A stretch of DNA of 42,169 bases, taken from NCBI GenBank assembly GCA_937770485.1, contig CALJHX010000006.1, positions 1-42,169 on the forward strand, in the 5' to 3' direction. The notes beneath the pieces are model-generated. The model was not told the origin of the DNA, did not search any database, and worked only from the letters and a program-made list of their open reading frames with translations. This DNA comes from an uncultured Verrucomicrobiae bacterium (GTDB taxonomy: Bacteria; Verrucomicrobiota; Verrucomicrobiia; Limisphaerales; UBA1096). Below, in pieces: positions 21,928 through 37,700 of the stretch (the stretch's first letter is position 1; each line of letters begins with the position of its first letter). Position numbers and translations under genes: made by a program.

Positions 21928-22001
21928 GCGGGTGTAGTTCAATGGTAGAACGCAAGCTTCCCAAGCTTGACACGAGGGTTCGATTCCCTTCACCCGCTCC
22001 A
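21928..22001 (+). tRNA. tRNA-Gly (anticodon CCC), CCA encoded
   Basis: A 74-nt cloverleaf. Acceptor stem GCGGGTG pairs perfectly with CACCCGC before TCCA. The D arm is GTTC...GAAC, the anticodon arm is CAAGC-TTCCCAA-GCTTG giving anticodon CCC (decoding GGG), and the T arm is GAGGG-TTCGATT-CCCTT. All stems close. Its last 28 bases recur exactly at 23355-23382 and 34295-34322 and in degenerate form at 27030-27057, so this gene is the likely attachment site of the elements that follow. Confidence 0.95.
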
Positions 22002-22097
22002 CTTCTTGAACCCTTCAACCTGAACGGCCTACAGCTTCGATGGAGTTGTAAGGGTTCATGTTTTCACAACGGATTCGGGGGGCTTCATCTAAGATCC
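22002..22097. repeat. D repeat, copy 1 (directly downstream of the intact tRNA)
   Basis: This ~95-bp segment aligns with copies at 27058 and 34323: CTTxxxxAACCCTTCA-xCCTGAACxG, a central hairpin region, CACAACGGATTC and GCTTCATC-xGAGATC. Copy 1 is the most diverged. It would be the right-hand arm of an attachment site or the leading end of the first cassette. The remainder of the 22002-22180 gap has no gene. Confidence 0.65.
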
Positions 22098-22180
22098 AAT
22101 CTTCCCAACTCATTGCACTCAAAAAAACCAATTCTACAAATTAACTTGAAGCTTCAATAGAGCGAGGGGATAAGTCCCCT

Positions 22181-23230
22181 GTGCCTAACATCAACCTCTC
22201 ATTTTTTTATATTTTATTAATTATATTCCACAATGCTGAAGCTGGTTTCTCTGCCGATTCAAATTCAGAGAATCCTAATTTAGGGGGAGGCGGCGATTAC
22301 ACTGTCGGACCAGATTATGTTGTTGATCCGGATTTAACAGATAAAGGGAATGCAAAGGGAAGAAGCTTTGAGTTCACAATGCGACTCTCCAATAGCAATA
22401 TCTTTAGAGGTACAGATGCCACACTGAACCCCAAGAAGCCCGTCCGTAAGGAGAGAAAGATTTATGCCTACGTGCCAGCTGCTTACAAAAATGGAACAAA
22501 GGCTCCAATTCTCGTAATGCATGACGGCCCCAGTCGGCTAAAACTTGTGAAAAACGCACTCGATAATTTGACGATTTCAAAAAATCCAAAACGTAAAATC
22601 CCAGCTTTTATAGTTATTTCTGTTCAAAATGGAGGTAACGACAGCAAGGGAAGTCAAAGGGGTTTGGAGTATGATACGCTTTCAGATCGATTTGCATGTT
22701 TTATAAATGATGAAGTTTTGCCTGCCGTATTGAACAACCGTGAGATTAAGGCAACTTATCCTAATATTGCCTTTACAGCTAACCCTTGGGGAAGAGCGAC
22801 AATGGGCTGTAGCTCTGGAGGGGCAGCAGCTCTAACGATGGGCTGGTTTCGCCCCGACTTATTCAGGCGGATAATTACTTATTCAGGTACATTCGTTGAT
22901 CAACAAGATGATGATGCGCCAGAAGAAATAAAATATCCACTCGGAGCATGGGAGTACCATTCCGGGAAAAAGTTGATTGAAAACAGTGTTAGAAAACCAC
23001 TGCGCATTTTTACTCATGTATCTGAAAACGACAATGGCGCAAAAAGTTCAGAATTGTCCCATCATAATTGGGTGATGGCCAACAAGCGCACGGCAGCAAC
23101 GCTTAAAGCAAAAGGGTATAATTATCGTTTTATATTTAGCCGTTCTTCCAGCCATTGCGACCGGCGGGTTTATGAGCAGACTCTTGCAGATACCTTGATC
23201 TGGATTTGGCAAGGTTACCAACCTGATTAA
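22181..23230 (+). CDS. Secreted alpha/beta-hydrolase, esterase D/enterochelin-esterase type
   Basis: 349 aa from a GTG start that begins a signal peptide (LSFFYILLIIFHNAEAGFSA). A putative esterase domain covers about residues 85-345: YVPAAYKNGTKAPILVMHDG, then the nucleophile elbow GCSSGG with Ser211, and a C-terminal SSSHCDRRV that supplies the His. The type is that of Fes/EstA-like hydrolases acting on acylated sugars or siderophores; substrate unknown. It is the only gene of cassette 1, transcribed away from the tRNA. Codon use is AT-rich compared with genes before 21.9 kb, consistent with transfer. Confidence 0.82.
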   Translation: MPNINLSFFYILLIIFHNAEAGFSADSNSENPNLGGGGDYTVGPDYVVDPDLTDKGNAKGRSFEFTMRLSNSNIFRGTDATLNPKKPVRKERKIYAYVPAAYKNGTKAPILVMHDGPSRLKLVKNALDNLTISKNPKRKIPAFIVISVQNGGNDSKGSQRGLEYDTLSDRFACFINDEVLPAVLNNREIKATYPNIAFTANPWGRATMGCSSGGAAALTMGWFRPDLFRRIITYSGTFVDQQDDDAPEEIKYPLGAWEYHSGKKLIENSVRKPLRIFTHVSENDNGAKSSELSHHNWVMANKRTAATLKAKGYNYRFIFSRSSSHCDRRVYEQTLADTLIWIWQGYQPD

Positions 23231-23268
23231 TTTTTTTGGCTAAGTCTAGGCAGCATGCCAACACACTT

Positions 23269-23382
23269 AAACTTTGTGAGATTCATTTAGATAAGGGAGA
23301 CACAGTGGGATTTGCACAGTCTAGACCATTATCCATTGGAGTTTTGAGTGTGCAGAGGGTTCGATTCCCTTCACCCGCTCCA
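23269..23382. repeat. U repeat copy 1 plus tRNA-Gly 3'-end copy
   Basis: About 86 bp beginning AAACTTTGTGAGATTCATT and containing GTGGGATTTGCAC, CCATTGGAGTTTTGAG and TGTGCA, followed by 28 bp (23355-23382) identical to the end of the tRNA-Gly gene including CCA. The same arrangement is at 26943-27057 and 34208-34322. The upstream part is not tRNA sequence, so the copy is not a functional tRNA; it looks like one arm plus core of an attachment site. Confidence 0.8.
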
Positions 23383-23517
23383 TTTCTCCAACGCACTAAA
23401 ATTGAGAGGGCAAACGCCCGGCCTGTTTTGGAGCGTAGGTGCTATGATTAGGCTTGCTTCGTTTTTGTGTTTCACCCAGTTGATTCAAACCAATCATCAC
23501 TCTGTAGGCATTAAAAT

Positions 23518-26500
23518 TTAATTCAACGTAGCTAGGTAGGCAACCAGATCGCGAACCTGTCGCAGATTAAGAATCGTTTTGAGGTCGGGCATTGTCCCAA
23601 TTGGCTTCGATTGGGATTTAAGTTCGGTGGTGGCAAAATATTCCAACGAGTTGTCAGGAAGTTTGATAGTAATTTTGTTTCCTCCCTTGCTTATCAAGGT
23701 GCCGCTTATTGTACGCCCATCCGTGAGTTGCACTGTGACAATCCCGTAACCTAGGGTGATTTCGGCCTGTGGATCGACGATGGACTGGAGCAGATATTCA
23801 CGCGAATGCCGTTTGGCGATGCCCTCCAAGCTCGGGCCAACCTGCTTGTCGATCTGCTTTAACGCATGACACTTCGAGCATTGGGCCTGCGCGTGGCCAA
23901 AAAATATACTATTTCCTTTTTCGGCGTTGCCTCCCTTCAGGGCAACGCCATAGCGCGTCATGATATCCTGTTTGTTAATGTAATTATTATAATGCTCCAA
24001 CTGCATCTTGAGATCTGCGGAGTCACGCGAGATAGTTGTGGCTGTTTCGAGGACTTCCAGCTGGATTTCAGGAGAGATTCTACCTGCGATTAGTTCCTTG
24101 ACGAGTTGTTCAATGATATACTTCTTTGAGGTCAGCCTTGGGATCATTTTAATCGCTTGCTGCAACTCAACCGTATCGCCGGAATTTTTAAGTGTTGTAA
24201 GCAGGTAGTTATCAACGGCAGAGCCCCCACGTTCGGCCTCCGTCAACTCTTGTGCAGCGACCATGCGAAGTGCAGGAGACTTTGAGTTTAAGGCTTGGGC
24301 GCCGACTGAACTAAACAAAGTGATGTCCCACTTGCGTAACAAACGAAGCCATTCCTTTCGCACAACGCTCCGTTGCTTTTCGTCCAATACGAAGCCAGTC
24401 GCTTGATCCAGTTTTGCTTTGTCCGGATTTATCCTCTGTAATACTGAGATGGCTTGTCGCGAAATCTTGTCGTCAGTGTCATTTGCCAGAGCCCAAATTT
24501 CTGGGCCAATAGCTGCATTGAGTGCGTCCATGTCACCTGCTGAAACGGGGAAGTAACGCCCGTCTATTGGATCTAGCTGGGATGCTTGCGGCCAAGATTC
24601 GAGAGCGTAAAGCGCTTGAATACGAAGAGCGCGACTCAGACTTGGATTCGCGAGGAAACGGGAAATGCGCTTTGCAGAAGCGAAGGTTCCGAGTCGACGA
24701 TTAGCCGCAATTGCACGAACGTTAACCGCGGGCGGATGTTGCGGATCGAGCGACCCTGCAACGGCGGGAAGGCTTTTTGGATGCTCCAAAAATGTTTGAG
24801 CTTCGGCTTCATCGTAGATGGCTCGAACAGCGTCGCTCATGACTTGTGGTGAAGCATCGTTTATAAAGGCCGTCAATTCCTTGAAGCCTTTTAGTCGCCT
24901 TAGGGAGACGACGGCAGCAATACGCATGGCTTCCGAAGGGTGCCCGACGAAGGTTTCCAGTTCTCTTAGTGTAGCAACTCCGACTAAGCCAGTGACGCCG
25001 GCATGGCGCAAAATAGGCTCCTTGTTTTCAGCCGAAACGATCAGTTCTTCAAGAGCGCCCAACGCATTCTTGCTATTGAGCTTGCCGCAGGCAATACCGG
25101 CCATCAGTCGCACGCGCGGTGATGGATCCCGAAGCATGACAGGTATCCGGTTTTCCGGATCAAAGCCAAGCTCGCCCGCCCAGCGAGCGGCTTGAGCACG
25201 CAGTTCATCACTGTCGTCGGCGCACAGGACTGTAAGTAAGTCCGAGTCCCTGTGCTTTAACTGTCCTAGCCCCCACAAGCTATGTAGCCGAGGGAGGAGC
25301 TCGGCTTTACGATTCGTTGCCAAAGCACGCAGGGCCTTACTCTCACCTCGGGCGACAAGTGCAAACTGCGCTTGCTGGCGAATTCGGCGATCGGAGTGTC
25401 CAAGAAGGGCAAGAAGTTCATCAACGGATTGGGTTTTTTGGTCTTTAGCCAAGATCTCCTTAACGTGGGTCATATTCTGCAAATTGGTATTTGCCTGCAG
25501 GGTCCAAAGTTGACTCATTCCACGGTTTGGCCTCCAGAGGGTGAAATAGAGCCGTCCATCAGGCCCAAAAGCCGACGTTAATACCTGCGCCCCGAGTCCT
25601 TGTATAAGGATATGATCACCCTGTCTTTTGAAGCCAGCCCCGTCAGCGATCATCCTAAAAGCACGAATATTACCCATTCCACCCAGGAGGAAATGATCAC
25701 TGTATGCTCCGTCTAGTGCAGTACCAGGCTGAAATGAGAAGGCTGCCGGGGCATTCCAGCTGTTTTCAATTGCAGGCAGAATATGAGAAGGCTGCTCCCT
25801 GTGAAATGGAAGCCACATCTTTTCTCCTAGCCACGGATTATAAAGATTATCTCGTGCAGCTCGAACAAGAGTGGTGTTCCGATATTGATAATACATGCGC
25901 CATCCCGAATCCGAACCTTCAGGTAGATATACGAGACGCTCTCGCTCTCCTTGGAAATCAGCATCATGATCTACGGCAAAGATATTGCCATAATTGTCAA
26001 AATCGAAGTACTGGCAGTTACGAAGGCCATTGGCAAAAATCTCGAACTCGCTCCCGTCTGGGTTACAACGCAAGATGCAGCCGGAATGCGGGTTGCTAAC
26101 TCGCTTGCCTTTTTTTGTCAGGACATCCAAACCACGATCTCCCATGCTCCAATAGAGCTTGCCGTCATAGCCTTGAACGATGCTGTGGAGGTCATGATTC
26201 CCATAACCAATGTGGGGAGCGAAGCCATGGGCAATGCTCTCCCTGCGGTCCGCAACCCCATCACCATCCGTATCGGTCAACTTCCAAAGGTCGGGAATAA
26301 TTGTGGTGTAGACGTGTCCGTCAATCGGCGTAACGCTGTGTGCTACCCCAGTCAGAACTTTGTTGAAACCGTCAGCAAATAGAGTTGCCTTATCAAATAC
26401 TCCATCGGCGTTCTCATCTTGCAGTGTGTAGATCTTTTCGCTACGCACAGATAAGTCCCTGACGTCCACTTTACCATCACCGTTGTAGTCACCCAATCTC

Positions 26501-26871
26501 TGTCGTGCGGCGATTTGTGGTGAGTAATTCTCTATTATCCACTTGCGCTTCGCTTTTGTGGATGTCAGCTCCATGTCCTTTTCATGCAGGAAAGGCGATT
26601 GAATAAGACTGATCTCTTCACGCTGCTGCCGAATAGTTTCGGTAACGTAAACCTTGCCATCGTAACTAATCCCAACCCCCATGATGGGCTTGGGCATAAA
26701 CTCGTCTCGCATGACAGGCACCGCAAGTAGTCCGTCACGCCCGATTAATGTGCCTGAAACCGTGGGCTGGCTGGACCCAATCACATTTGCATCCATATGG
26801 GCGTTTAATCCCCAAACCATGCCTATCAGGCAGAGGAATATTAAGGGGGATTTTATGCAGTTATAAATCAT
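23518..26871 (-). CDS. PVC membrane-bound dehydrogenase/heme-binding protein with HEAT repeats and CxxCH
   Basis: About 1117 aa from the ATG at 26871 (MIYNCIKSPLIFLCLIG, a signal or anchor segment); the frame stays open to 27066, but that extension crosses the U/tRNA repeat. Residues about 40-470 form a beta-propeller of the PVC 'membrane-bound dehydrogenase' type with Ca-binding-like DYNGDGKVD and DTDGDGVAD loops and HDLHSIVQGYDGKLYW. Residues about 500-900 are HEAT-like repeats. The C-terminal cytochrome-c domain has CSKCH at 998-1002 and a DPQAEITLGYG tail typical of these heme proteins. Probably a periplasmic sugar or alcohol dehydrogenase donating electrons to its own heme; substrate unknown. 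It is the sole gene of cassette 2 and AT-richer than the host region. Confidence 0.87.
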   Translation of the reverse strand: MIYNCIKSPLIFLCLIGMVWGLNAHMDANVIGSSQPTVSGTLIGRDGLLAVPVMRDEFMPKPIMGVGISYDGKVYVTETIRQQREEISLIQSPFLHEKDMELTSTKAKRKWIIENYSPQIAARQRLGDYNGDGKVDVRDLSVRSEKIYTLQDENADGVFDKATLFADGFNKVLTGVAHSVTPIDGHVYTTIIPDLWKLTDTDGDGVADRRESIAHGFAPHIGYGNHDLHSIVQGYDGKLYWSMGDRGLDVLTKKGKRVSNPHSGCILRCNPDGSEFEIFANGLRNCQYFDFDNYGNIFAVDHDADFQGERERLVYLPEGSDSGWRMYYQYRNTTLVRAARDNLYNPWLGEKMWLPFHREQPSHILPAIENSWNAPAAFSFQPGTALDGAYSDHFLLGGMGNIRAFRMIADGAGFKRQGDHILIQGLGAQVLTSAFGPDGRLYFTLWRPNRGMSQLWTLQANTNLQNMTHVKEILAKDQKTQSVDELLALLGHSDRRIRQQAQFALVARGESKALRALATNRKAELLPRLHSLWGLGQLKHRDSDLLTVLCADDSDELRAQAARWAGELGFDPENRIPVMLRDPSPRVRLMAGIACGKLNSKNALGALEELIVSAENKEPILRHAGVTGLVGVATLRELETFVGHPSEAMRIAAVVSLRRLKGFKELTAFINDASPQVMSDAVRAIYDEAEAQTFLEHPKSLPAVAGSLDPQHPPAVNVRAIAANRRLGTFASAKRISRFLANPSLSRALRIQALYALESWPQASQLDPIDGRYFPVSAGDMDALNAAIGPEIWALANDTDDKISRQAISVLQRINPDKAKLDQATGFVLDEKQRSVVRKEWLRLLRKWDITLFSSVGAQALNSKSPALRMVAAQELTEAERGGSAVDNYLLTTLKNSGDTVELQQAIKMIPRLTSKKYIIEQLVKELIAGRISPEIQLEVLETATTISRDSADLKMQLEHYNNYINKQDIMTRYGVALKGGNAEKGNSIFFGHAQAQCSKCHALKQIDKQVGPSLEGIAKRHSREYLLQSIVDPQAEITLGYGIVTVQLTDGRTISGTLISKGGNKITIKLPDNSLEYFATTELKSQSKPIGTMPDLKTILNLRQVRDLVAYLATLN

Positions 26872-26942
26872 GATTGAAGACAGATGAAGGAGTTCTTTAC
26901 CCGTATTACCGAATGAAATCCAATAAAAATCATGGTAACATG

Positions 26943-27057
26943 AAACTATGTGAGACTCATTGAGATAAAGGAGGTGCATTAGGGTTTGCACTGTTTTAGA
27001 GATTTCCTTATTGGAGTTACGAGTGTGCAGTGGGTTCGACTCCCTATACCAACTACA
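26943..27057. repeat. U repeat copy 2 plus degenerate tRNA 3'-end copy
   Basis: Begins AAACTATGTGAGACTCATT and is alignable to the other two U copies along its length (GGTTTGCACTGT, TATTGGAGTTACGAGTGTGCA). The terminal 28 bp (27030-27057) match the tRNA-Gly end at about 21 of 28 positions; the substitutions break acceptor pairing. It starts 72 bp upstream of the heme-protein start codon, so promoter elements of that gene may lie in it. Confidence 0.7.
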
Positions 27058-27138
27058 CTTTTCCACCCTTCAGTCTGAACGGTTTACCGCTGCGATAGAG
27101 CAGTGGAGATTCTGATTCTCACAACGGATTCAATGAGC
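27058..27138. repeat. D repeat, copy 2
   Basis: Very similar to copy 3 at 34323: CCCTTCAGTCTGAACxG, TTTACCGCT, GATAGAGCAGTGG, a small hairpin, then CACAACGGATTCAATGAGC. The hairpin is GAGA (27106-27109), loop TTCTGAT, TCTC (27117-27120); in copy 3 the second pair changes from A-T to G-C while the loop is the same. Confidence 0.75.
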
Positions 27139-27181
27139 AGCCATTGCAGCTTGTAATAAAGGCTATGGTTTTTTGAGTTCA

Positions 27182-27315
27182 TCAGGTCGGCTTAAGGTGA
27201 GCAGCCAAGCGCTTACGGGCGCGATGCAGCCATACTTTCACGGAGCTGACGATCACATCCAATGCCTCGGCGATCTGATTTGCCTTCATTCCTTCTCCAT
27301 AAAAAAGTTTTGATG
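27182..27315 (-). pseudogene. ECF-type sigma factor, C-terminal fragment (region 4)
   Basis: Minus-strand translation gives a sigma-70 region 4 helix-turn-helix: YGEGMKANQIAEALDV then SSVKVWLHRARKRLAAHLKPT and a stop at 27182-27184. The family normally has about 120-150 residues before this; here they are missing, because from about 27310 leftwards the minus strand reads into the methyltransferase fragment. So only the DNA-binding -35 recognition part remains, and it is not a functional sigma factor. Confidence 0.75.
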
Positions 27316-27747
27316 TTATGGGCGCAGGATGCCATTCTTCACAGCGGCAACCGCAAAAAAGTTTTTGAGGAAGTCCACCGTGTGCTCCGCCCGGGAGGCG
27401 AATTCATCTTTACCGACCCGATGCAAAAACCCGGCGCCGATGCTGAAACCCTAAAACCCGTGCTGGAACGCATTCATTTGGAATCCATGGGCAGCGTGGA
27501 ATGCTATGGGAACTATGCTCGCGAGCTGGGCATGGAGACGATTGAAGTGCTGCAAATGCCGGAGCAGCTGGTGAACCATTACAGCGCAGTCCTCCACAAT
27601 CTGGAAAGCAGGCATGACAAACTCAAAGATGTCTGCGATCCTGCCTACCTTGAGCGCATGCAAAACGGACTCAATCACTGGATTGATGCCGGCAAAAACA
27701 ATGCACTCGACTGGGGTATATTACATTTCCGCAAGGCGTACTCCTAA
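27306..27747 (+). pseudogene. Sarcosine/dimethylglycine N-methyltransferase, 5'-truncated
   Basis: About 145 C-terminal residues of an SDMT-type SAM methyltransferase: WAQDAILHSGNRKKVFEEVH, RVLRPGGEFIFTDPMQ, QLVNHYSAVLHNLE and the end GILHFRKAYS. These enzymes make glycine betaine from sarcosine or dimethylglycine. The N-terminal half with the SAM Gly-loop is absent. At the break, the expected FDV is read in the neighbouring frame at 27310-27318 (TTTGATGTT), so a two-base loss follows the junction as well. The residues upstream in the open frame (from 27262) are antisense of the sigma fragment. The stop lies 19 bp before the BCCT start, a usual osmoprotection arrangement. Confidence 0.82.
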
Positions 27748-27765
27748 TGTTTGGCAGCATTGTCG

Positions 27766-29286
27766 ATGATGAAAGATTCCCCTTCAAAAAAACCGGCTTG
27801 GGACTTCCACCCGACCGTGTTCTTGGCATCGGCCATCATCATTATACTAGCTGTTGTGATCGGATTGATCTACATCGGCCAAAATTCAGCAGAACAAGCA
27901 GAGCAGTTGTTTTCCAGTTTGAAAACAACGATGTCCAATGCGACTGGCTGGTTTTTTATACTCTCGGTTAATATTTTTCTGATCTTGGTTCTTTATATCG
28001 GATTCTCCAAGTACGGAAATATCCGTATTGGCGGCAAAGAGGCGCAACCCGAGTTCAGCCGCCTCTCGTGGTTTGCCATGCTCTTCAGCGCCGGTATGGG
28101 CATAGGGCTGGTCTTCTGGAGCGTCGCCGAACCCATCTCCCACTACAGCTCCCCACCGGTCGCCGAAGCCGAAACCGCGTTGGCTGCGAGAGAAGCGATG
28201 ACCTACACCTTCTTTCATTGGGGCTTTCACGCATGGGGCATCTACGCACTGGTGGGACTGGCCATTGCTTATGCCTGCTTCAACCTCAAGCAGCCGCTGA
28301 CCATCCGTTCCACCTTCTACCCACTGCTCGGCGACAAGGTTCACGGTCCACTCGGCAACCTCATCGATATCCTCGCTGTGGTTGCAACACTCTTTGGCGT
28401 GGCCACCTCGCTCGGGCTGGGGGTACAGCAGGTAAACGCAGGGCTCAATCACTTGTGGAACGTTGAAGAAGGGGTAAACACCCAGATACTGCTCATCATT
28501 GGAATTACCGGTATCGCCACGATCTCGGTAGTTTCCGGTGTCAATAACGGCATACGAAAGCTCAGCACGCTGAACATGGTCATGGCCGCACTGCTGCTTC
28601 TGAGTGTTTTGGTATTCGGCCCAAGCTTGTTCTTGTTGGACGCGCTTGTCCAAAACATCGGAGACTATGCACAAAAACTGCCGGCTCTCAGCACTTGGAC
28701 GGAAGCCTATGCCGATACGGACTGGCAAAACGACTGGACTATTTTTTACTGGGCCTGGTGGATCTCCTGGTCACCTTTCGTTGGCATGTTCATCGCGCGA
28801 ATATCCAAAGGGCGCACCGTGCGCGAGTTTGTCACTTGTGTGTTACTCGTTCCTTCACTCCTTGGCATTCTTTGGCTCGGCATCTTTGGCAATGCCGCAC
28901 TGCACCAGGAACTACTCGCCGAGGGTGGCGTCGCTACAGCTGTCAAAGACAACGTAGCCGTAGCCATCTTCGCATTATTGGAAAACTACCCCATGGCCGG
29001 CATGACCTCGGGACTGGCCATCCTCGTTGTCGTCACTTTTTTCATCACTTCATCCGACTCAGGCTCGCTCGTTATCGACATCATCACTGCCGGTGGCAAA
29101 ACGGACCCACCCGTAAAGCAGCGCATCTTCTGGGCTGTATTGGAAGGCGTAGTGGCGGCCGTATTACTTATCGGTGGCGGACTCCTGGCACTGCAAACGG
29201 CTTGCATCCTGACTGGCCTGCCCTTTGCCATTGTCCTGCTGTTCATGGGATGGAGCCTGCTCAAGGCACTACGAACAGAAAACTGA
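27766..29286 (+). CDS. BCCT-family betaine/choline transporter
   Basis: 506 aa from the ATG at 27766 (MMKDSPSKK). Twelve hydrophobic segments with BCCT hallmarks: AGMGIGLVFWSVAEPISHY and the signature WAWWISWSPFVGMFIARISKGRTVREF in the eighth segment, plus SSDSGSLVIDI near the C-terminus. It imports glycine betaine, choline or related quaternary amines with Na+ or H+. Length is that of short BetP/OpuD-like members without a long cytoplasmic osmosensing tail. It follows the truncated methyltransferase, as in halophile betaine loci. GC content is intermediate between the AT-rich cassettes and the bet operon, and it lacks TTGGCCAA. Confidence 0.93.
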   Translation: MMKDSPSKKPAWDFHPTVFLASAIIIILAVVIGLIYIGQNSAEQAEQLFSSLKTTMSNATGWFFILSVNIFLILVLYIGFSKYGNIRIGGKEAQPEFSRLSWFAMLFSAGMGIGLVFWSVAEPISHYSSPPVAEAETALAAREAMTYTFFHWGFHAWGIYALVGLAIAYACFNLKQPLTIRSTFYPLLGDKVHGPLGNLIDILAVVATLFGVATSLGLGVQQVNAGLNHLWNVEEGVNTQILLIIGITGIATISVVSGVNNGIRKLSTLNMVMAALLLLSVLVFGPSLFLLDALVQNIGDYAQKLPALSTWTEAYADTDWQNDWTIFYWAWWISWSPFVGMFIARISKGRTVREFVTCVLLVPSLLGILWLGIFGNAALHQELLAEGGVATAVKDNVAVAIFALLENYPMAGMTSGLAILVVVTFFITSSDSGSLVIDIITAGGKTDPPVKQRIFWAVLEGVVAAVLLIGGGLLALQTACILTGLPFAIVLLFMGWSLLKALRTEN

Positions 29287-29667
29287 TTCGCCTTAAACAA
29301 GGCCTCATTGATTTGTCCAATGTGGGCAAAGATAAAAAAAGGGTCTTTTTGGTTTTGAACAGGCCATATTTGCGAGTCCGTGAAACGCGATTACAATCCC
29401 CCTCTTGATTTGGCGCGGCTTGGTTTTTGTTGCGCTTACCGTTTTGCTGTTTGCGGCGAAGAAAAATACCCCGCCGGTGGTGGATAAGCCGTTCGCGCCG
29501 CTGGAGACGGAGTGGACGATGCAGGAAGTTATCGCATGTACCGATTGTTCGTATCCATTCCGTAACGATTTCACTTCAACTTTTGTCTGGTCGCTGAGTG
29601 AACGGAAGACCCTGAAGTTCTCCGGGGACCAAAGCCGGGTAGGGCGCCGAGCGCTCATGAAAAACTC
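29287..29667. other. Gene-free spacer with unassigned fragments
   Basis: This 380-bp stretch separates the BCCT gene from the HAD gene. A short open frame on the plus strand from about 29405 begins with a hydrophobic run (GLVFVALTVLLFAA) then KKNTPPVVDKPFAPLE. It looks like the export signal of a protein cut off near 29560; I do not recognise it. The base composition changes to GC-rich at about 29.66 kb, so a recombination junction probably lies here. Confidence 0.4.
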
Positions 29668-30309
29668 TTACTCGAAGAACCCTTCTGCCAACTCCGTGAA
29701 ATCTCCGATGCAGCGGTGGGCGATGGCCTGCCGTTGCTCATCGGTTCCGATGCCGATGACGTACATGCCCGCCGCTATCGCCGCCTGCAGGCCGGGGATG
29801 CTGTCCTCGAAAACCAGGCAGTGGTTGGGCTCGACGCCCAGGGCCCGGGCGGCGACTTCAATGCACTGGGGGTCGGGCTTCGACCGTTGAATGTCTTCGG
29901 CGCACACGAGGTGCGTGAAGTGCTCGCCGAGACCCAGGCGGGCAACCACGTGCTCGACACTTTCTCGGTCGCTGGACGAGACCAGGGCCGTGGCTCGGCG
30001 TCGGGCCGCGGCCATGACCACTTCGGGGGCGCCTGCGATGACCGGGGGCACGGTTTCGACCAGCGCCCGGTGAAACTCGGCTTGCAACTCGGCGGCGACG
30101 TCGACGGTCCGCAGGCTGGGCGCGAGTTTCTGCAGTGTTTCGGCTGCCCGGGACCAGGTGCGGCCGTGAAAGGCGGTGCTGTCGACCTCGAGGTCCAGGT
30201 CGTGGGCTGTCAGCAGATGGGCCACGGCGGCGTCGGTGAGGTGCTCCGAATCGAGGAGGGTGCCGTCCATGTCGAAGAGAACCGCTTCGATGGGGTGGGG
30301 CCAGTTCAC
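29668..30309 (-). CDS. HAD-family phosphatase, beta-phosphoglucomutase-like
   Basis: 213 aa from the GTG at 30309, directly after the betB stop (TGACGTG). Seen: motif I FDMDGTLLD with nucleophile Asp13 and Asp15, a helical cap, motif II SSSD, motif III lysine in RSKPDPQCIEVAARALGV, and motif IV VFEDSIPGLQAAIAAGM. This is the BPGM/DhaP-like HAD subfamily IA, which acts on small phosphate esters. It is the last gene of the betA-betB-HAD operon; a choline-phosphate substrate would fit this position but is only inference. The upstream open frame to 30573 is antisense to betB. C-terminus ends LAEGFFE. Confidence 0.88.
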   Translation of the reverse strand: MNWPHPIEAVLFDMDGTLLDSEHLTDAAVAHLLTAHDLDLEVDSTAFHGRTWSRAAETLQKLAPSLRTVDVAAELQAEFHRALVETVPPVIAGAPEVVMAAARRRATALVSSSDRESVEHVVARLGLGEHFTHLVCAEDIQRSKPDPQCIEVAARALGVEPNHCLVFEDSIPGLQAAIAAGMYVIGIGTDEQRQAIAHRCIGDFTELAEGFFE

Positions 30310-30310
30310 G

Positions 30311-31786
30311 TCAATCGTCAGCCCCGAACCAGCCAAAGGCCTTGGGGGCATGGTTGCGATAGATGTGCTTGAGTTCGGTGTACTCGTCGAGACCCGCTCG
30401 GCCCAGTTCGCGGCCGATGCCCGATTGCTTGTAGCCCCCCCAGGGCGCGGCGGGGAAATAGACGTTGAAGTCGTTGGCCCACACCGTGCCGAAGCGCAGG
30501 GCGCGACTGACCCGTTCGATGCGGGCTTCGTCGGTGGTCCAAAAGCCCGCCGACAGCCCATAGACCGTGTCATTGGCCCGGGCGATGGCCTCGGCTTCGC
30601 TGTCGAAGCGCTCGACGCCGATGACCGGGCCGAAGACTTCTTCCCGGGAGATGGTCATCTCGGGGGTGCAGCCCGTCAGCAGGGTGGGCAGGTAGAAAAA
30701 GCCATTGGCCAGAGCCGGATCGTCGGGTCGGGCGCCTCCCACCACCAGGGTTGCACCTTCACTCAGGGCCAGGGCCACGTGGTCTTCGACCTTTTGCCGG
30801 TGGGCCGCCGAAATGAGCGGGCCCATGCGCGTATCCGGATCGGCGCCGTTGCCGACGGTGATGGCCTTCATGCGGGCCGAGAGGGCTTCGACGAAGGCAT
30901 CGTGAATGGGCGATTCGACCAGCAGCTTTGCGCCCGCCGAACAGATTTGGCCGGCGTGAAAGAACACCGCGTTGAGCGCGTAGTCGACGGCGACGTCGAG
31001 GTCGGCGTCGGCGAAGATGAGGTGGGGATTCTTGCCCCCGAGTTCCAGGGCCACCCGCTTCAGGTTGCCGGCAGCGGCCCCCATGATGGTCCGGCCGGTC
31101 TGACTGCCGCCCGTGAACGACAGAAGGTCGACGCCATGGTTCTCGGCCAACTCGGCGCCGACGGTGGCGCCGGGGCCCAGCACGGTGTTGATGACGCCGT
31201 TGGGAAAACCGACCTCTTCGCAGAGTTCGGTCAGACGTAGGGTGGTCAGGGGGGTCAACTCGCTGGGCTTCATGACCACCGTGCATCCCGCCGCCAGGGC
31301 GGGGGCCAGTTTCCACGAGGCCTGCAGCAACGGATAGTTCCAGGGCAGAATCAGCCCGCAGACGCCGACGGGCTCACGGACGGCGATGCTCTTGCCATTG
31401 GGGTCAGGGGCCTCGAGGACTTCGCGGGCTTCTTCCCGGGCCAGTCCAGCGTAGTAATTGAACACCGCGGCCACATCGTCCATGTCCCAGCGGCTTTCCT
31501 CGGTGGTCTTGCCGGTGTCCGTGGTCTCGAGGCGGGCGAGTTCTTCTCGATTTGCAGCGATTGCGTCGGCCAGGGCCACCAGCAGGTCAGCCCGCTCTGC
31601 GCCGGTGGTCTGCGACCAGGGGCCGGTATCGAAGGCCCGCCGGGCACTGATGATTGCAGCCCGGGCATCGGCCCGACCCCCTTCGGCCACCCGGGCGATT
31701 TCGGAGCCATCGAAGGGATTGATGATGGAGCGGGTTTCCCCCGAAGCGGCGTCAAACCACGCCCCGTCGATGTACAGCCTGCTCAT
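30311..31786 (-). CDS. betB: Betaine-aldehyde dehydrogenase (NAD(P)-dependent aldehyde dehydrogenase)
   Basis: 491 aa from the ATG at 31786 with a strong Shine-Dalgarno AAGGAG 8 bp upstream. Catalytic landmarks: Asn150 in LILPWNYPL, SFTGGSQTGR at 223-232, Glu248 in LELGGKNP, and the nucleophile Cys282 in GQICSAG. EEVFGPV and the C-terminal PWGGYKQSGIGRE are present. It oxidises betaine aldehyde to glycine betaine in the cytoplasm. The ATG overlaps the stop of betA by 4 bp (ATGA), so the two enzymes of the pathway are co-translated; this context supports betaine aldehyde over other aldehydes. Codon use is GC-rich and unlike the neighbours to either side. Confidence 0.9.
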   Translation of the reverse strand: MSRLYIDGAWFDAASGETRSIINPFDGSEIARVAEGGRADARAAIISARRAFDTGPWSQTTGAERADLLVALADAIAANREELARLETTDTGKTTEESRWDMDDVAAVFNYYAGLAREEAREVLEAPDPNGKSIAVREPVGVCGLILPWNYPLLQASWKLAPALAAGCTVVMKPSELTPLTTLRLTELCEEVGFPNGVINTVLGPGATVGAELAENHGVDLLSFTGGSQTGRTIMGAAAGNLKRVALELGGKNPHLIFADADLDVAVDYALNAVFFHAGQICSAGAKLLVESPIHDAFVEALSARMKAITVGNGADPDTRMGPLISAAHRQKVEDHVALALSEGATLVVGGARPDDPALANGFFYLPTLLTGCTPEMTISREEVFGPVIGVERFDSEAEAIARANDTVYGLSAGFWTTDEARIERVSRALRFGTVWANDFNVYFPAAPWGGYKQSGIGRELGRAGLDEYTELKHIYRNHAPKAFGWFGADD

Positions 31787-33432
31787 TGGGTCGTCTCCTT
31801 CACGTAATAGGGTACGTGTAGCGGTTCTAAGGGCGTATTGCCCAGGATCATGTCCGCGGCCTTCTCGGCGATCATCAAGACCGGGGCATAAATGTTCCCG
31901 TTGGTGATGGCGGGCATGACCGACGCATCCACAACGCGGAGACCTTCGACGCCGTGCACCCGCAGTTCGGGGTCGGTCACCGCATCGGGGCCGATACCCA
32001 TTTTGCAGGTGCAACTGGGGTGGTAGGCGCTTTCACCCTGTTGGCGAATGAACTCGAGAATCTCTTCGTCGGTTTCTACCCCTGGTCCCGGGGCCAACTC
32101 TTCGTCTCGAAAACGGTCGAAAGCTGGCTGGGTCATGATGTTTCGGGTACAGCGAATGGCTTCGACCCATTCCCGCCGTTCCTGTTCGGTGCCCAGGTAG
32201 TTGAAGACGAGGTCGGGATAGTCGGTGGGGTCGGCGGATTTGATGCGCACATGACCCCGGACATCGGTGTTCATGGGGCCCACGTGAACCTGGTAGCCAT
32301 GGCCCGGCCGTGCGCTGGAGCCGTCGTAGCGAATGGCGATGGGCAGAAAGTGATATTGCAGGTTGGGGTAGGCCACCCGGTCGTTGCCCCTGATGAATCC
32401 ACCCGCTTCGAATTGATTGCTGGCGCCGATCCCCCGCCGCCGGAACAACCACTGAAATCCAATCCAGGGTTGGCGCCACCATTTGAGCGCTGGGTACAGG
32501 CTTACGGGCTGGGTGCAACCGTATTGAATATAGACTTCCAGGTGGTCTTGGAGGTTTTCGCCCACCATGGGCAGGCTCTGCACCATATCGATGCCCAGAG
32601 GCTCGAGGCGCTCGGGATCACCAATGCCCGATAACTGAAGAAGTTGGGGCGAGTTGATAGCCCCGCCACAGCAGATGATCTCGTCGCCCCGTACGATGGA
32701 CGTACGCCCTTTCCGACGAATCTCGACCCCCACGGCGCGACGCCCTTCGAAGATGATGCGGTTGACCATGACTCCGCATTGCACCGTCAGGTTGGGTCTC
32801 TTCGTGACCGGGTGTAGATACGCTCGGGCGGCATTCCAGCGACGACCCCGCCAGGTGGTCCGGTCGAAGGGACCAAAGCCTTCCTGCTGGTAGCCGTTTA
32901 CATCGTCGGTAAGGGGATAGCCTGCTTCTTTGGCCGCGGCGAATAACGCATCGAAGAGGGGATTGTCGCAATCGGCGGTGGTCAGATACAGCGGCCCATC
33001 GGTTCCGTGGTAATCGTCGTCGCCAACGAGTCGATTCTCGATGCGCTTGAAGTACGGCAGTACATGGGCGTAGCTCCAGGCATCTAGACCCGGAAAACGC
33101 GCCCACTTTTCGTAGTCGAGGGCGTTGCCCCGAATATAGATCATGCCATTGATGGTGCTGGACCCACCCAAGACTTTGCCCCGGGGCTGGTAGACCCGTC
33201 GGCCATTCATGAAGGGCTCGGGCCCTGACTCGTACCACCAATTGTACATGCGGCTGGCCAGGGGATAGGTCAGAGCCGCCGGCATGTGCAGGCGGAAGTC
33301 CCATCGGTGATCGGGCCGGCCGGCTTCGAGGACCAACACTCGAGTGGACGTATCTTCACTCAGTCGGCGAGCCAAAACGCAACCGGCCGAGCCGCCGCCA
33401 ATGATGATCTTGTCGTAGGTTTTTTCCACCAA
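31783..33432 (-). CDS. betA: Choline dehydrogenase (GMC flavoprotein oxidoreductase)
   Basis: 549 aa from a TTG at 33432, with GTG at 33429 as alternative. FAD motif IIIGGGSAGCVLARRL at 9-24, the GMC signatures RGKVLGGSSTINGMIYIRG and GAINSPQLLQLSGIG, and active-site His471 in SAYHPSCTCKMG with the second His/Asn segment PAITNGNIYAPVLMIAEKAAD. It oxidises choline to betaine aldehyde, passing electrons to the respiratory chain or oxygen. The first gene of the betA-betB-HAD operon; no BetI regulator is present. The DNA upstream is an amputated host-type gene that stops at about 33440, so the operon seems to have been inserted there. Some GMC relatives use other alcohols, but the betB partner argues for choline. 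Confidence 0.9.
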   Translation of the reverse strand: MVEKTYDKIIIGGGSAGCVLARRLSEDTSTRVLVLEAGRPDHRWDFRLHMPAALTYPLASRMYNWWYESGPEPFMNGRRVYQPRGKVLGGSSTINGMIYIRGNALDYEKWARFPGLDAWSYAHVLPYFKRIENRLVGDDDYHGTDGPLYLTTADCDNPLFDALFAAAKEAGYPLTDDVNGYQQEGFGPFDRTTWRGRRWNAARAYLHPVTKRPNLTVQCGVMVNRIIFEGRRAVGVEIRRKGRTSIVRGDEIICCGGAINSPQLLQLSGIGDPERLEPLGIDMVQSLPMVGENLQDHLEVYIQYGCTQPVSLYPALKWWRQPWIGFQWLFRRRGIGASNQFEAGGFIRGNDRVAYPNLQYHFLPIAIRYDGSSARPGHGYQVHVGPMNTDVRGHVRIKSADPTDYPDLVFNYLGTEQERREWVEAIRCTRNIMTQPAFDRFRDEELAPGPGVETDEEILEFIRQQGESAYHPSCTCKMGIGPDAVTDPELRVHGVEGLRVVDASVMPAITNGNIYAPVLMIAEKAADMILGNTPLEPLHVPYYVKETTQ

Positions 33433-33439
33433 GGCGAGG

Positions 33440-33647
33440 ATCCTATGAGAGGGGTCACAGGCCTGTCAATCGCTGACAGCGGTTGCTCCTTAGCGGTTAG
33501 AACAAATAGAGCACCGGCACCCACAACCAGCAGAAGCCCCAGTATTGCGGCCCCAGCCAAGCTTAAGACAATAAATAACCAAGAGCGTGATTTCCGGGGA
33601 GCCGGAGGTGAAGAAGGGGGCAAAACAGGAGGCATTCCCAAATCCAT
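33440..33647 (-). pseudogene. N-terminal fragment of a membrane-anchored protein
   Basis: Minus strand from the ATG at 33647: a Pro-rich head (MPPVLPPSSPPAPRKSRS) then one long hydrophobic segment (WLFIVLSLAGAAILGLLLVV) and VLTAKEQPLSAIDRPVT. This is the start of a PVC-style protein with a cytoplasmic Pro-rich N-terminus and one membrane anchor. At about 33440 the frame runs into betA leader sequence, so the body of the protein is missing. It marks one edge of the inserted bet operon. Confidence 0.6.
33463..33479. promoter_or_regulatory. Small inverted repeat upstream of betA
   Basis: CTGTCA-ATCGC-TGACAG is a perfect 6-bp inverted repeat about 31-47 bp before the betA start, at the join between the bet operon and the neighbouring gene fragment. 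It could be an operator or part of the junction; no regulator gene is visible to match it. Confidence 0.3.
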
Positions 33648-33794
33648 ACAAAATTTTAACGCATGGACGCTAATGGCCGCAACAATTCCAGACTTTCACG
33701 CGGACGAAAACGCAGGCAGAAATAGCCATGCGCCCACTGCTTTTAATTCTGCTCATAAGGATCACGGTTATGAGCTCCACCATCGGAACGGTAG

Positions 33795-33955
33795 CGGGCA
33801 CCGGGAAGGCGGGTAAGATGCCGGCTTATTTTAACCAAGGGCAGAGCGCGTTGTTCGATATTTTGGACGGCGACGCCGGGCAGCAGATTGAGGCGCTGCA
33901 CCATTACATTCGGCTGGGTGACGAGATGGTGCCGCCAGAGGCGCCGGGGCAGTGA
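33795..33955 (+). pseudogene. C-terminal fragment resembling a PVC cytochrome-c protein
   Basis: Residues GTVAGTGKAGKMPAYF, then QSALFDILDGDAGQQIEALH and YIRLGDEMVPPEAPGQ, with a stop at 33953-33955. The pattern MP.F..G.S.L..+L.GDA..Q++A+W.Y+ is that of the extreme C-terminus of large Verrucomicrobia/Planctomycetes cytochrome-domain proteins. The ~1000 preceding residues, including any CxxCH, are absent; the 22 residues before (from 33728) do not belong to the family. Debris beside the amputated membrane gene. Confidence 0.45.
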
Positions 33956-34207
33956 TTTTTTTGCTAAAGAATCGCTTCACCTATTCAAAGCGACTGGACA
34001 AGAGCGGACAAATAATGATGAAAAATGTGTTCACCCGATTCATCAGCCGATTTGCGGCATCCCTCACAAGATCCATGAAATTCAAGACATAATAAGGCTT
34101 AGCTATTATTCATTGCATTCACAAAATCCTCCCCAAACATGGGGGTAAGAAGGATGAAGCCATAAGATCTGGTGGTGGATAAAGAAGTCCAAATAACCTC
34201 TTCACTG

Positions 34208-34322
34208 AAACTGTGTGAGACTCATTGAGAAAAGGGGAGATCAGTGGGATTTGCACTGTCATAGCCACTCATTCATTAGAGTTTAGATTGTGAAGAGGGT
34301 TCGATTCCCTTCACCCGCTCCA
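34208..34322. repeat. U repeat copy 3 plus tRNA-Gly 3'-end copy
   Basis: Begins AAACTGTGTGAGACTCATT, contains GTGGGATTTGCACTGTC and TCATTAGAGTTTAGA, and ends in 28 bp (34295-34322) identical to the 3' end of the intact tRNA-Gly including CCA. It is 12.3 kb from that tRNA and is the right-most attachment-like site in the window. Confidence 0.8.
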
Positions 34323-34417
34323 CTTATCAACCCTTCAGTCTGAACAGTTTACCGCTACGATAGAGCAGTGGGGATTCTGATTCCCACAACGGATTCAATG
34401 AGCTTCATCCGAGATCT
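34323..34417. repeat. D repeat, copy 3
   Basis: Closest to copy 2, with CCCTTCAGTCTGAACAG, TTTACCGCTACGATAGAGC and CACAACGGATTCAATGAGC, and continuing into GCTTCATCCGAGATC as in copy 1. The hairpin GGGA (34371-34374), TTCTGAT, TCCC (34382-34385) shows a compensating change against copy 2. Confidence 0.75.
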
Positions 34418-34657
34418 GACGTTCTAACTCTGTGCTCTGATCTCTGTGCTTCTCTATCAATTGATGAATCTACTGTTGCTGCCTCTGTCTAAGACGGTTC
34501 ATCTCATTGCTTCGTTCTCAGCAATCGTCGTCTTTCGTTAATGTCGATGTTGCTCTTACTCTCTCGCTCAACGTAATCGTTACTTGTCGATTTACCCGTA
34601 AGTACTGATTTGAATACACTCTTTTATGATTCCACTTAATTGTAAGGGATAACTAGG
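34418..34657. other. Gene-free pyrimidine-rich region
   Basis: No plausible gene on either strand. The stretch is rich in CTCTG/TCTCT and CGTT words (CTCTGTGCTCTGATCTCTGTG near 34430) and lies between the last D repeat and the duplicated 5' region of the protease gene. I see no stem strong enough to call an RNA. Confidence 0.3.
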
Positions 34658-34769
34658 CCCTCTCTATTGCTTCATTTTTTTGATCTCTTTTTCTATTCTG
34701 AACGCCTTTTATTGTGGTAATGTGCCATCCACCGGGTGCAGCTGATACGCCAGTCCATAAAATTTCCCT
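34658..34769 (+). promoter_or_regulatory. Duplicated 5' region, copy 1 (upstream of the clostripain-like gene)
   Basis: About 110 bp ending at the ATG at 34770. It shares with 40290-40402 the words TTGCTTCATTTTTT, TTGATCTCTTTTT, CTATTCT, CCTTTTAT, GGTAATGTGCC and CCACCGGGTGC in the same order. Conservation between two paralogs whose bodies have diverged points to promoter or leader function. No clear Shine-Dalgarno is visible. Confidence 0.55.
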
Positions 34770-37700
34770 ATGAAACAACAAATCAAAATATATTACATAA
34801 TAGCTATTTACATTTTGAGTCTCGCTCATGTCAGCGCCCAAGAGTTGGCTCCGGATAAAGGGGCATACAAGCCGGGCGAGGATGTTGTCATTTCGTTTTC
34901 CGGGGGGCCGGGTAACACAAAGGATTGGGTGGGTATCTACAAGGAGGGGCAGACGCCAGATGCAGTTATTTCTGTCCAATATAAGTATGTGGGCGGCGAG
35001 ACTTCGGGAGAGTTACTTTTTGATTCGCTGCCAGCTGGGAAGTATGAGGTATATTTATTTGAAGATGATGGCTATGCCATATTGGCTGCGGCTAAATTTG
35101 AAATTATTCAAGATGTAGAATCACCAAAGCTGACATCATCCAAGACAACATATGAAGTGGGAGATAAGATAGTTGTAACATTTAGTGGAGGCCCTGGAAA
35201 CGCTTTAGATTGGATAGGAATCTACAAGGAGGGGCAGACGCCAGACGCAGTTATTTCTGTCCAATATAAGTATGTAGGCGGCCAGACTTTGGGAGAGTTA
35301 TATTTTGATTCACTGTCAGTTGGAAAGTATGAGGTGCATTTATTTGAAGATGATGGCTATGATAAATTGGCTACAGCTAAATTTGATGTAAAGGAAAGCA
35401 TTAACAACAGTCCAATAGTTTCCAATCAGAGTGTGGAGGTGGATGAGAATGGGGCAGTGTCAATAACACTGATTGGGAGTGACAAGGAAGAAGACACATT
35501 AAGTTTCACAGTATTAAGTCAGCCAAAGAACGGGACACTGGGTGGCACGGCCCCGGTGCTTAGCTACAGTCCTAATGCGAACTATTCAGGGAGTGATAGC
35601 TTTACTTTTAAAGCTAATGACGGCAGTGCAGATTCAAATACGGCAACAGTGAGCATTACTGTGATTGAGAACGTAGTAGCTGAACTAACATCATCCAAGA
35701 CAACATATGAAGTGGGAGATAAGATAGTTGTAACATTTAATGGAGGCCCTGGAAACGCTTTAGATTGGATAGGAATCTACAAAGAGGGGCAGACGCCAGA
35801 CGCAGTTATTTCTGTCCAATATAAGTATGTAGGCGGCCAGACTTTGGGAGAGTTACATTTTGATTCACTGTCAGTTGGGAAGTATGAGGTGCATTTATTT
35901 GAAGATGATGGCTATGATAAATTGGCTACAGCTAAATTTGATGTGAAGGAAAGCATTAACAACAGTCCAGTAGTTTCCAATCAGAGTGTGGAGGTGGATG
36001 AGGATGGGGCAGTGTCAATAACACTGATTGGGAGTGACAAGGAAGAAGACACATTAAGTTTCACAGTATTAAGTCAGCCAAAGAACGGGACACTGGGTGG
36101 CACGGCCCCGGTGCTTAGCTACAGTCCTAATGCGAACTATTCAGGGAGTGATAGCTTTACTTTTAAAGCTAATGACGGCAGTGCAGATTCAAATACGGCA
36201 ACAGTGACGATAAATGTAATAGCCGGGTCGGATTTGGGAGAAGTGGTTTACTTTATGGAAAACTTCGACGTTCTGGAGCTTGGCCCGTTTGTCTCGGGCA
36301 GCGAGTCGGGTGGTGATGGCACGGACTGGACCTCGACCGCTCCGATAAACTGGGTGCAAGCTACCGGCGGCGGATATCGTCAGACAGCACGGAACGCGGC
36401 CACCGGCAAAAAGGTAACCGCCAGTTCCGAGGAGGCCAACAAGGGCAATCTCGCCAAACACGCCGTCGATGGCGATCCCACCACCCGTTGGTGCGCCGCC
36501 AACGGCGCAACCGGCTCGTGGCTGCAGGTGGACCTTGGCCAAGCGCAGGACATCCAAAATGTCCGGCTCATTTGGGAGAATGCCAACGGCGCGTACCAAT
36601 ACAAGATCGAAGGCTCTGCCGACGACAAGGACTGGAAACTGCTCGTCGACCAATCGAAAAACAAGGCAGTGCAACAGGTCACCCCGCACAAGGTCGATGC
36701 AAAAAAAACCCGCTACTTCAAAATCACCTACCTGGGGGCCAATCCGGCGTACTGGGCTAGTTTTTGGGAATTCGAGGCCCACACCGGTGCCCTACCGGAG
36801 TTGCCTCGCAAGGTCGTCGGCGACGATTTTGCTGTCGAGTTTAACGGATGGACTTTTTTGGATCCGGTATCGTGGAACGCCACGGCTGGCCAGGACAGGG
36901 ATCAGTTCAAGAAGGGTCAGGGGGTAATAGCAGTGGCGGATCTGGATGAATACAACGACAAGGAGTCTTCGAAACTTGATGCGTGGTTGTCGACGCCGGA
37001 GATAGAGATAACAAGAGCGGGAGCGGGGACGCTGGTGTTGAGTTATGATTCGAGTTTGAGGCAGAAGGCACCGCAGACGGGGAGAGTTACGGTGAGTTAC
37101 AATGGAGGTGAAGAAGTGACATTACTGGAGTTGAACGCATGTACGGCGACAGCGTATGATGAGACGGTTGAGTTGAATTTAAAGAATCCGGCAGGGGCAA
37201 AGACAGCGGTGATAAGTTGGCATCATAAAAAAAATATCGGCGTTCGGTGGGACCGGGACGGTAATAGGGTAGATACATCAGCAGGGTGGTGGGCGATAGA
37301 TAATGTGAAGGTTTATGAAGAAAGGGGTAATACTGCTCCGGTGGTGGCGGCCCAGACGGCTACAGTGACGATAAACGTAATCAAGAAGAAAGAGGATGAG
37401 CCGTTATTAAGTTTATCGAAGACGGAGTATGAGGAGGGAGAGGTGGTAGAGGTTAGCTTTAGTGGAGGGCCTGGGAATGCTAAGGACTGGGTGGGGATCT
37501 ACGAAGAGGGTAGCCAGGAGATGAGCGCAGACAAATTTTTGGGTGGCAGGATATCCGGACAGTTGATCTTTGATCCGCTTTCTTCAGGAAGGTATGAGGT
37601 AGTTTTGTTTGAGAATGGCAGTAATCAAAAGTTGTATACTACAAATTTTAATGTGAGGAAGGAGGGCAGCGGCTGGGTCACAATAGTCCATTCTGCAATA

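What the first reader, a model, noticed from the sequence alone, without database searches (positions are those of the whole stretch)
21928..34322. Tandem cassette array built on repeated 3' ends of one tRNA-Gly gene
Seen: after the intact tRNA-Gly(CCC), its last 28 bases recur at 23355-23382 and 34295-34322 (perfect) and at 27030-27057 (about 21/28). Each copy is preceded by the same ~85-bp non-tRNA segment (U). The intact tRNA and two of the three copies are followed by a related ~95-bp segment (D). U-tRNA end-D therefore behaves like a composite attachment site and divides the region into 1.4, 3.7 and 7.3-kb cassettes with unrelated cargo. Known: integrative elements often use tRNA 3' ends and can stack in tandem, as tycheposons do in Prochlorococcus. 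Inferred: repeated insertion at one tRNA, newest next to the tRNA, with the recombinase supplied from elsewhere, since no integrase is seen. I know of no described verrucomicrobial system of this form.
Basis: partly seen in the sequence, partly recalled or inferred. Interest (0 to 1): 0.87.

Follow-up and report, generated by a model that had tools for sequence, protein, structure and literature searches.

The report
Integrase-less cassettes stacked behind tRNA-Gly
Behind one tRNA-Gly gene of an uncultured, likely verrucomicrobial bacterium lie three complete gene cassettes (likely six with a neighbouring contig) in which no recombinase gene was detected, and because the same short ends and a copy of the tRNA's 3' end bound cassettes in sibling species too, some directly behind tRNA-Gly genes, they likely move by an unseen recombinase acting on those shared ends.

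Summary
Behind tRNA-Gly(CCC) (21928-22001), perfect 28-nt tRNA 3' ends recur at 23355 and 34295 and a degenerate one at 27030. A conserved ~90-bp segment U precedes each copy; D follows the tRNA and two copies. The array likely continues on contig C4 (three more sites, then a chromosomal flank). In siblings G011 and G017 both flanks lie on one contig, 1.0 and 2.7 kb apart, against about 49-51 kb here. U or D occurs in 14 of 21 same-genus genomes; 26 of 31 testable U copies abut a tRNA-Gly end. Both tRNA-Gly(CCC) and (TCC) are used, and the TCC site is empty here. Four cassettes, over the parts compared, are more alike between species than the measured flanks (E3, a choline-to-betaine operon: 97% over 7 kb). 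No tyrosine or serine recombinase lies in any of 14 cassettes with both edges seen. In G006 the cassettes' tRNA ends differ from both resident tRNA-Gly genes, so cassettes seem to bring their own end, as an attP does. Best reading: non-autonomous cassettes with a common U-t-D attP, moved in trans. The recombinase was not found; 'newest next to the tRNA' is not supported. New variant of tRNA-linked additive islands.

The parts
21928..22001 (+). intact tRNA-Gly(CCC), attachment gene; its last 28 nt (21974-22001) are the repeated segment t
   Evidence: ARAGORN; pattern search
22002..22097 (+). D of cassette E1 (left end, next to the tRNA)
   Evidence: repeat family D4; profile match 22009-22097, E 8.7e-21
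22002..23382 (+). cassette E1 (1.38 kb): putative esterase PF00756 at 22181-23230; GC 42.8% against 60.8% upstream
23264..23354 (+). U of cassette E1 (right end)
23355..23382 (+). perfect tRNA 3'-end copy t
23383..27057 (+). cassette E2 (3.68 kb, no D found): DUF7133/HEAT/cytochrome c protein on - strand (frame 23518-27066)
   Evidence: last 1166 nt of the compared part 91.9% identical to G019:C33
26941..27029 (+). U of cassette E2
27030..27057 (+). degenerate tRNA 3'-end copy (6 of 26 mismatches)
27058..27141 (+). D of cassette E3
27058..34322 (+). cassette E3 (7.27 kb): truncated methyltransferase, BCCT transporter, HAD hydrolase, betaine-aldehyde-dehydrogenase-like ALDH, choline dehydrogenase
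   Evidence: 97.0% identical to G010:C41 over 7021 aligned nt
34203..34294 (+). U of cassette E3
34295..34322 (+). perfect tRNA 3'-end copy t
34323..34421 (+). D of cassette E4
34323..42169 (+). left part of cassette E4 (Big_9/cadherin-like/clostripain surface proteins); likely continues on contig C4 to about 8010

Best explanation
The tRNA-Gly 3' end is followed by a tandem array of cassettes in which no recombinase gene was found (three complete in the window, likely six in all), most of them bounded by the conserved arms D and U, which are likely the two halves of a shared attachment site attP = U-t-D used by one recombinase supplied in trans. Inferred mechanism: an excised cassette circle would carry U-t-D, where t is its own copy of the tRNA-Gly 3' end. 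Recombination of t with the tRNA 3' end, or with an older t copy, would give tRNA-t-D...cargo...U-t and keep the tRNA intact. Repeats at tRNA-Gly(CCC) or tRNA-Gly(TCC) would stack cassettes, and recombination between U-t-D copies would delete or fuse them. Shown: anatomy, conservation of U and D beside tRNA-Gly ends across the genus, near-empty, empty and differently filled sites in siblings, cassettes shared between species, and no tyrosine or serine recombinase match inside. Inferred: circles, the trans-acting enzyme, and its class (likely tyrosine).
For: U (query without t) hits 12 of 21 same-genus genomes and D 11 of 21, 14 of 21 together. At a fixed offset, a t copy (or the tRNA's own end) with at most 8 of 26 mismatches adjoins 26 of 31 testable U and 24 of 30 D copies; random places give 8 of 5000, some of them likely real sites. 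Outside the genus every listed match of the U-t-D query falls at the tRNA part (list cut). Left flank, tRNA-Gly(CCC), a t-like copy and the C4 right flank lie on one contig in G011:C208 and G017:C275, 1.0 and 2.7 kb apart. At tRNA-Gly(TCC), G000:C18 is empty; G006:C25 has U-t before the same right flank and G017:C364 has tRNA-D after the same left flank. Interspecies identity exceeds that of measured flanks: E3/G010 97.0% over 7021 nt (flank 72-78%), E2/G019 91.9% over 1166 nt (69%), E5/G002 93.6% over 673 nt (80-86%), E6/G020 89.0% over 828 nt, behind a tRNA-Gly(TCC) (74-79%). PF00589 in none of 14 cassettes with both edges seen; PF00239 in 1 of 21 genomes, on a contig with no U or D hit. In G006 both tRNA-Gly genes read TTCGCCC while 5 of 5 readable cassette copies have A at that position, so t seems to come with the cassette. 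Island GC 42-58% against 61-62% core.
Against: No helper recombinase was found, and no circular form can be seen in assemblies. Shared binding-site repeats in U and D are not significant (9-mers: 18 of 60 shuffles as good; U against reversed D: 20 of 200). 5 of 31 testable U and 6 of 30 D copies lack a recognisable t, and one U copy (G016:C118) was found on a contig fetched for its t. Two U copies lie beside genes that by eye look like core genes (G003:C43; G016:C118). E2 lacks D and E5 lacks U. E6 is no more alike between G000 and G006 (87.5%) than the flank (90.6%). E3 and its G010 relative are about 98% identical in the middle, 90-95% over the last 0.8 kb of cargo and 87% at U-t, a mosaic that also fits homologous recombination. 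The C6-C4 join is inferred. The same-genus genomes are 61-93% complete.
Confidence: 0.66

Rival explanations
1. Decayed autonomous islands: each cassette was once an ordinary integrative element with its own integrase at the same tRNA, and all lost it.
For: Some t copies are degenerate. An integrase gene start lies beside a tRNA-Gly end in G002:C30, and fragments related to that integrase exist in G000:C34 and G014:C121.
Against: None of 14 cassettes with both edges seen has a PF00589 match, including ones with close relatives in other species and cassettes as short as 1.1-1.4 kb. No U was found at the G002 integrase end.
Confidence: 0.17
2. Homologous recombination only: natural transformation or transduction brings cassettes in, and the ~200-bp U-t-D repeats serve as homology for insertion, deletion and swapping.
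For: U-D fusion lacking t in G006:C373, at 15932-16026 of L128; mosaic identity of E3 and its 1.6-kb gap against the G010 form.
Against: Cassettes also sit at tRNA-Gly(TCC), where G000 has no U or D, so a first insertion without homologous arms is needed; U and D abut t at a fixed offset in most copies.
Confidence: 0.12
3. Transposition with target-site duplication (casposon- or Tn7-like): U and D are terminal repeats and t is a duplicated target.
For: U and reversed D share a short gapped match, TCACTGAAACTG-TGTGAGATTCA / TCATTGAATCCGTTGTGAGAATCA.
Against: A match as good is reached by 20 of 200 shuffles. In G006 the t copies carry A where both resident tRNA-Gly genes have G, 5 of 5 readable. 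Cas1 and transposase families were not searched for genome-wide.
Confidence: 0.05

Closest known systems
Additive flexible genomic islands at tRNA genes (Alteromonas fGI1, PMC4119200, PMC5217437; Methylophilaceae fGI-2 with repeats of the last 20 bp of tRNA-Lys, PMC10872708)
   Same: cassettes added or lost behind a conserved tRNA, with repeated tRNA 3' ends; niche cargo (passages seen)
   Different: here the cassettes share conserved arms U and D across a genus, two tRNA-Gly genes are used, and no recombinase was found inside; whether those islands have comparable arms was not checked
Dehalococcoides ssrA genomic islands (PMC3146451)
   Same: tandem islands after one RNA gene with a short 3'-end repeat and a conserved 15-bp motif beside it; the paper counts 15 islands without an integration module and suggests cis-mobilizable elements (passages seen)
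   Different: target is tmRNA, and 16 of those islands carry a serine-recombinase module; here PF00239 occurs in 1 of 21 genomes, on a contig with no U or D hit
Tycheposons (Prochlorococcus; the original paper was not held under the DOI tried; known here second-hand from passages of PMC10872708 and PMC11389934)
   Same: tRNA-bordered cargo elements in marine bacteria with nutrient cargo
   Different: described with a tyrosine recombinase in the element; no PF00589 match in 14 cassettes with both edges seen here
Integron cassette arrays (recalled)
   Same: arrays of non-autonomous cassettes moved by one recombinase in trans
   Different: tRNA-derived site and long operons here; the U hairpin shows no covariation; an integron integrase was not searched for by its own model

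Membership tests
Additive flexible genomic island at a tRNA | variable set of cassettes at a conserved tRNA locus, absent or different in relatives | tested here: met
   G011:C208 and G017:C275 near-empty; other cassettes before the same right flank in G006 and G007
Additive flexible genomic island at a tRNA | repeated tRNA 3' ends between cassettes | tested here: met
Cis-mobilizable element (CIME) | no integration gene inside | tested here: met
   PF00589 and PF00239 in none of 14 cassettes with both edges seen
Cis-mobilizable element (CIME) | no transfer genes inside | tested here: inconclusive
   no conjugation domain among the cassette proteins given to Pfam; not every open frame was scanned
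Cis-mobilizable element (CIME) | functional attL/attR used by a neighbouring element's enzyme | not testable with these tools
   needs circle detection or a recombination assay
Tycheposon | tyrosine recombinase within the element | tested here: not met
   0 of 14 cassettes with both edges seen
Tycheposon | tRNA at the border, cargo for nutrient or stress functions | tested here: met
   betaine, YaaA, ABC uptake; phosphate uptake next to U-t-D in G001:C78
Dehalococcoides-type ssrA island | insertion at ssrA with serine recombinase module | tested here: not met
   tRNA-Gly target; PF00239 in 1 of 21 genomes
Integron | attC sites that fold as a conserved hairpin | tested here: not met
   the one candidate stem in U is paired in 69% of cells against 70% after shuffling; D was not tested this way
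Integron | integron integrase with attI next to the array | not tested
   only PF00589 was searched; no match on contigs C6 and C4

The most novel reading that the evidence does not exclude
A genus-wide shared pool of recombinase-free, often single-operon cassettes that carry one ~200-bp attP (U-t-D) and are plugged in and out of two tRNA-Gly genes by a single trans-acting recombinase: an integron-like economy built on tRNA ends, trading osmolyte, phosphate, solute-uptake and stress functions among verrucomicrobial species.
Probability: 0.4. Interest if true: 0.82.

Novelty: new variant of a known kind. Interest (0 to 1): 0.62.

Why it matters
If right, gene content of these bacteria is reshuffled cassette by cassette at two fixed tRNA sites without each cassette paying for its own integrase. 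The conserved 200-bp end gives a simple handle for finding cassettes, their cargo and the missing enzyme in metagenomes, and makes the helper question directly testable.

Tried and rejected
Arm-type repeats in U and D: no better than shuffles. Conserved hairpin in U: no covariation. Known RNA family over four U-t-D loci: 3 matches, all below gathering score. U or D in viral contigs: 0 for each of two exact patterns. Phage and plasmid records: every listed match lies within query positions 112-154 of 261, the tRNA-derived segment (116-143) and its edges; 8 plasmid records were not listed. Trans-phylum spread: D also occurs in contigs labelled Flavobacteriales, Alphaproteobacteria, Phycisphaerales and Acidimicrobiales. 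One (L225) is 99.8-99.9% identical to G011:C77 and one (L218) 91.6-94.7%, so mis-binning is likely for these; two (L229, L231) are unresolved. An ORF start beside t in G018:C60 looked integrase-like by eye but has no Pfam match. The profile was contaminated by neighbouring frames; for G genomes I rely, and for L218, L225, L227, L229, L231 only (no match).

Full report
Observation. tRNA-Gly(CCC) lies at 21928-22001. Its 3' 26 nt recur perfectly at 23357 and 34297 (no match in any of 100 shuffles); a degenerate copy with 6 mismatches lies at 27032. U precedes all three copies; D follows the tRNA, the second and the third copy but not the first. The stated coordinates and sizes hold.

Beyond the window. 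The window is a whole contig (C6, 42,169 nt) of a 3.30-Mb, 83%-complete genome. Besides the end of the second tRNA-Gly (C18), the only other U-t-D-like places found are on contig C4: U-t-D at 7.9-8.1 kb, t-D at 30.1 kb, U-t at 31.2 kb, plus one D relic without t on C24. C6 ends and C4 begins inside related surface-protein genes, and C4:1-1801 is 94.9% identical to window 39494-41295. They are therefore likely neighbours, either adjoining or overlapping as variants. The island would be about 49-51 kb and ends U-t without D before a chromosomal flank, as the model predicts for the outermost right end.

Empty and other sites. In G011:C208 and G017:C275 the window's left flank, the tRNA, a t-like copy (5 and 4 mismatches) and the C4 right flank lie on one contig, with 1.0 and 2.7 kb between. 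This supports the join and shows the locus is polymorphic. What lies there in G011 is a 224-aa spermine-synthase-like gene behind what by eye is another kind of left end, so the CCC site there is near-empty, not empty. The second isoacceptor, tRNA-Gly(TCC), is empty in G000 (C18) but followed by D in G017:C364, while G006:C25 shows U-t before the same right flank.

Conservation. With t excluded from the queries, U matches 12 of 21 and D 11 of 21 same-genus genomes, 14 of 21 together. By eye, other left ends follow the tRNA in several of the rest. In the fetched contigs, 32 U and 30 D copies were found. 26 of 31 testable U copies and 24 of 30 D copies have t (for some D copies the tRNA's own end) with at most 8 of 26 mismatches at the fixed offset. 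Outside the genus, 119 of 125 genomes matched the U-t-D query, but every listed match lies within query positions 106-155, the tRNA-derived part (116-143) and its edges; the list was cut.

Cassettes shared between species. Cargo clusters recur between species in different company. E3 is 97.0% identical to a cassette in G010:C41 over 7021 nt, while the tRNA flank is 72-78% identical. E2's end matches G019 at 91.9% over 1166 nt (right flank 69%), E5's start G002 at 93.6% over 673 nt (flanks 80-86%), and E6 (YaaA) G020 at 89.0% over 828 nt, where it sits behind tRNA-Gly(TCC) (flank 74-79%). Against this, E6 in G006 is 87.5% with the right flank at 90.6%, which says nothing for transfer.

Cargo. 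E1 esterase; E2 DUF7133/HEAT/cytochrome c; E3 BCCT transporter, HAD, ALDH, choline dehydrogenase; E4 Big_9/clostripain surface proteins; E5 clostripain, DUF7133, kelch and an ABC uptake system of unresolved substrate; E6 YaaA. The G010 form of E3 also has glycine/sarcosine N-methyltransferase (over its cut-off) and a sarcosine/dimethylglycine methyltransferase-like gene (below its cut-off); in the window the first is missing and the second truncated. G001:C78 carries pstS, pstC, pstA, pstB and phoU (each over a cut-off) and a phoB-like gene, next to U-t-D.

Recombinase. PF00589 was searched in all 21 genomes; none of its hits lies in the 14 cassettes with both edges seen: E1, E2, E3, E5, E6 of G000; two in G006:C373 (one with a fused U-D edge), one in G006:C451 (its outer t has 7 mismatches); one each in G007:C4, G009:C67, G011:C77, G020:C5; two in G010:C41. 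Only G002:C30 has an integrase (first 248 aa, SAM-like and catalytic domains, cut by the contig end) beside a t copy, and no U was found there. G001, with U and D, shows only two PF00589 hits, in frames of 328 and 337 aa, Xer-like by size (not tested further). Serine recombinases: 1 of 21 genomes, G006:C414. So the enzyme is host Xer, phage-borne, missed through incompleteness, or of another class.

Origin of t. Both tRNA-Gly genes of G006 read TTCGCCC, whereas 5 of 5 readable cassette copies in G006 have A at that position. A target duplication would copy the G; a cassette-borne attP explains the A. This is one genome and one position, so it is indicative, not proof.

Order of insertion. Mismatches from the tRNA outward are 0, 0, 6, 0, 4, 5, 3. 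Insertions have not simply piled up next to the tRNA.

Literature. Six searches in the held library listed no paper whose title or abstract start describes such arrays in Verrucomicrobiota; one search held 1 paper, and of the 68 papers only 10 were listed. Passages of PMC10872708, PMC11389934, PMC3146451, PMC5217437 and PMC4119200 were seen; no paper was read whole. Additive islands and ssrA islands are the closest kinds found. The absence claim holds only for that library and those terms.

Taxon. Contigs carrying D in named records are mostly titled Verrucomicrobia, Limisphaerales or Pedosphaera MAGs, several from the sea by their isolate names (recalled meaning), and several contig lengths coincide with G contigs, so the genus is likely marine Limisphaerales (inferred).

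Noticed in passing
L233, L245, L237, L248, L255, L242; L236, L252; L240, L243: By eye, other left-end classes follow tRNA-Gly in relatives, one with a doubled AAGTTACACC: several element families seem to share this target.
   Followed up: partly
L120:8649-9392 and t at 8512-8537; fragments in L274 and L265: A tyrosine integrase starts beside a tRNA-Gly end in G002; fragments related to it (28 aa at 89%, 70 aa at 76%) persist in G000:C34 and G014:C121.
   Followed up: partly
window 34770-42118; L014:783-13949: Very large tandem-repeat surface proteins (Big_9, clostripain) in E4/E5, with near-identical repeats at the contig break.
   Followed up: partly
window 27262-27747: Truncated methyltransferase gene; the G010 cassette has the longer sarcosine/dimethylglycine-type form plus a glycine/sarcosine methyltransferase.
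   Followed up: yes
L209:10039-12003 (G001:C1) and L128:14930-16386 (G006:C373): E1-like and E6-like (YaaA) sequences lie next to each other, in G001 behind a weak D match about 13 kb downstream of a tRNA-Gly-like gene: cassettes may fuse.
   Followed up: no
L106:9690-9762 (G000:C24): D-like relic without a tRNA end, away from the array.
   Followed up: no
L105 (G003:C43) and L107 (G016:C118): U copies next to genes that by eye look like tsaD, and like psd and pheT: possible secondary sites or rearrangements.
   Followed up: no
L225, L218, L229, L231: Cassette contigs placed in MAGs labelled as other phyla; L225 is 99.8-99.9% identical to a contig of G011, so likely mis-binned.
   Followed up: partly
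L128:15932-16026: A U-D fusion lacking t, joined at a shared AGTGGGATT.
   Followed up: partly
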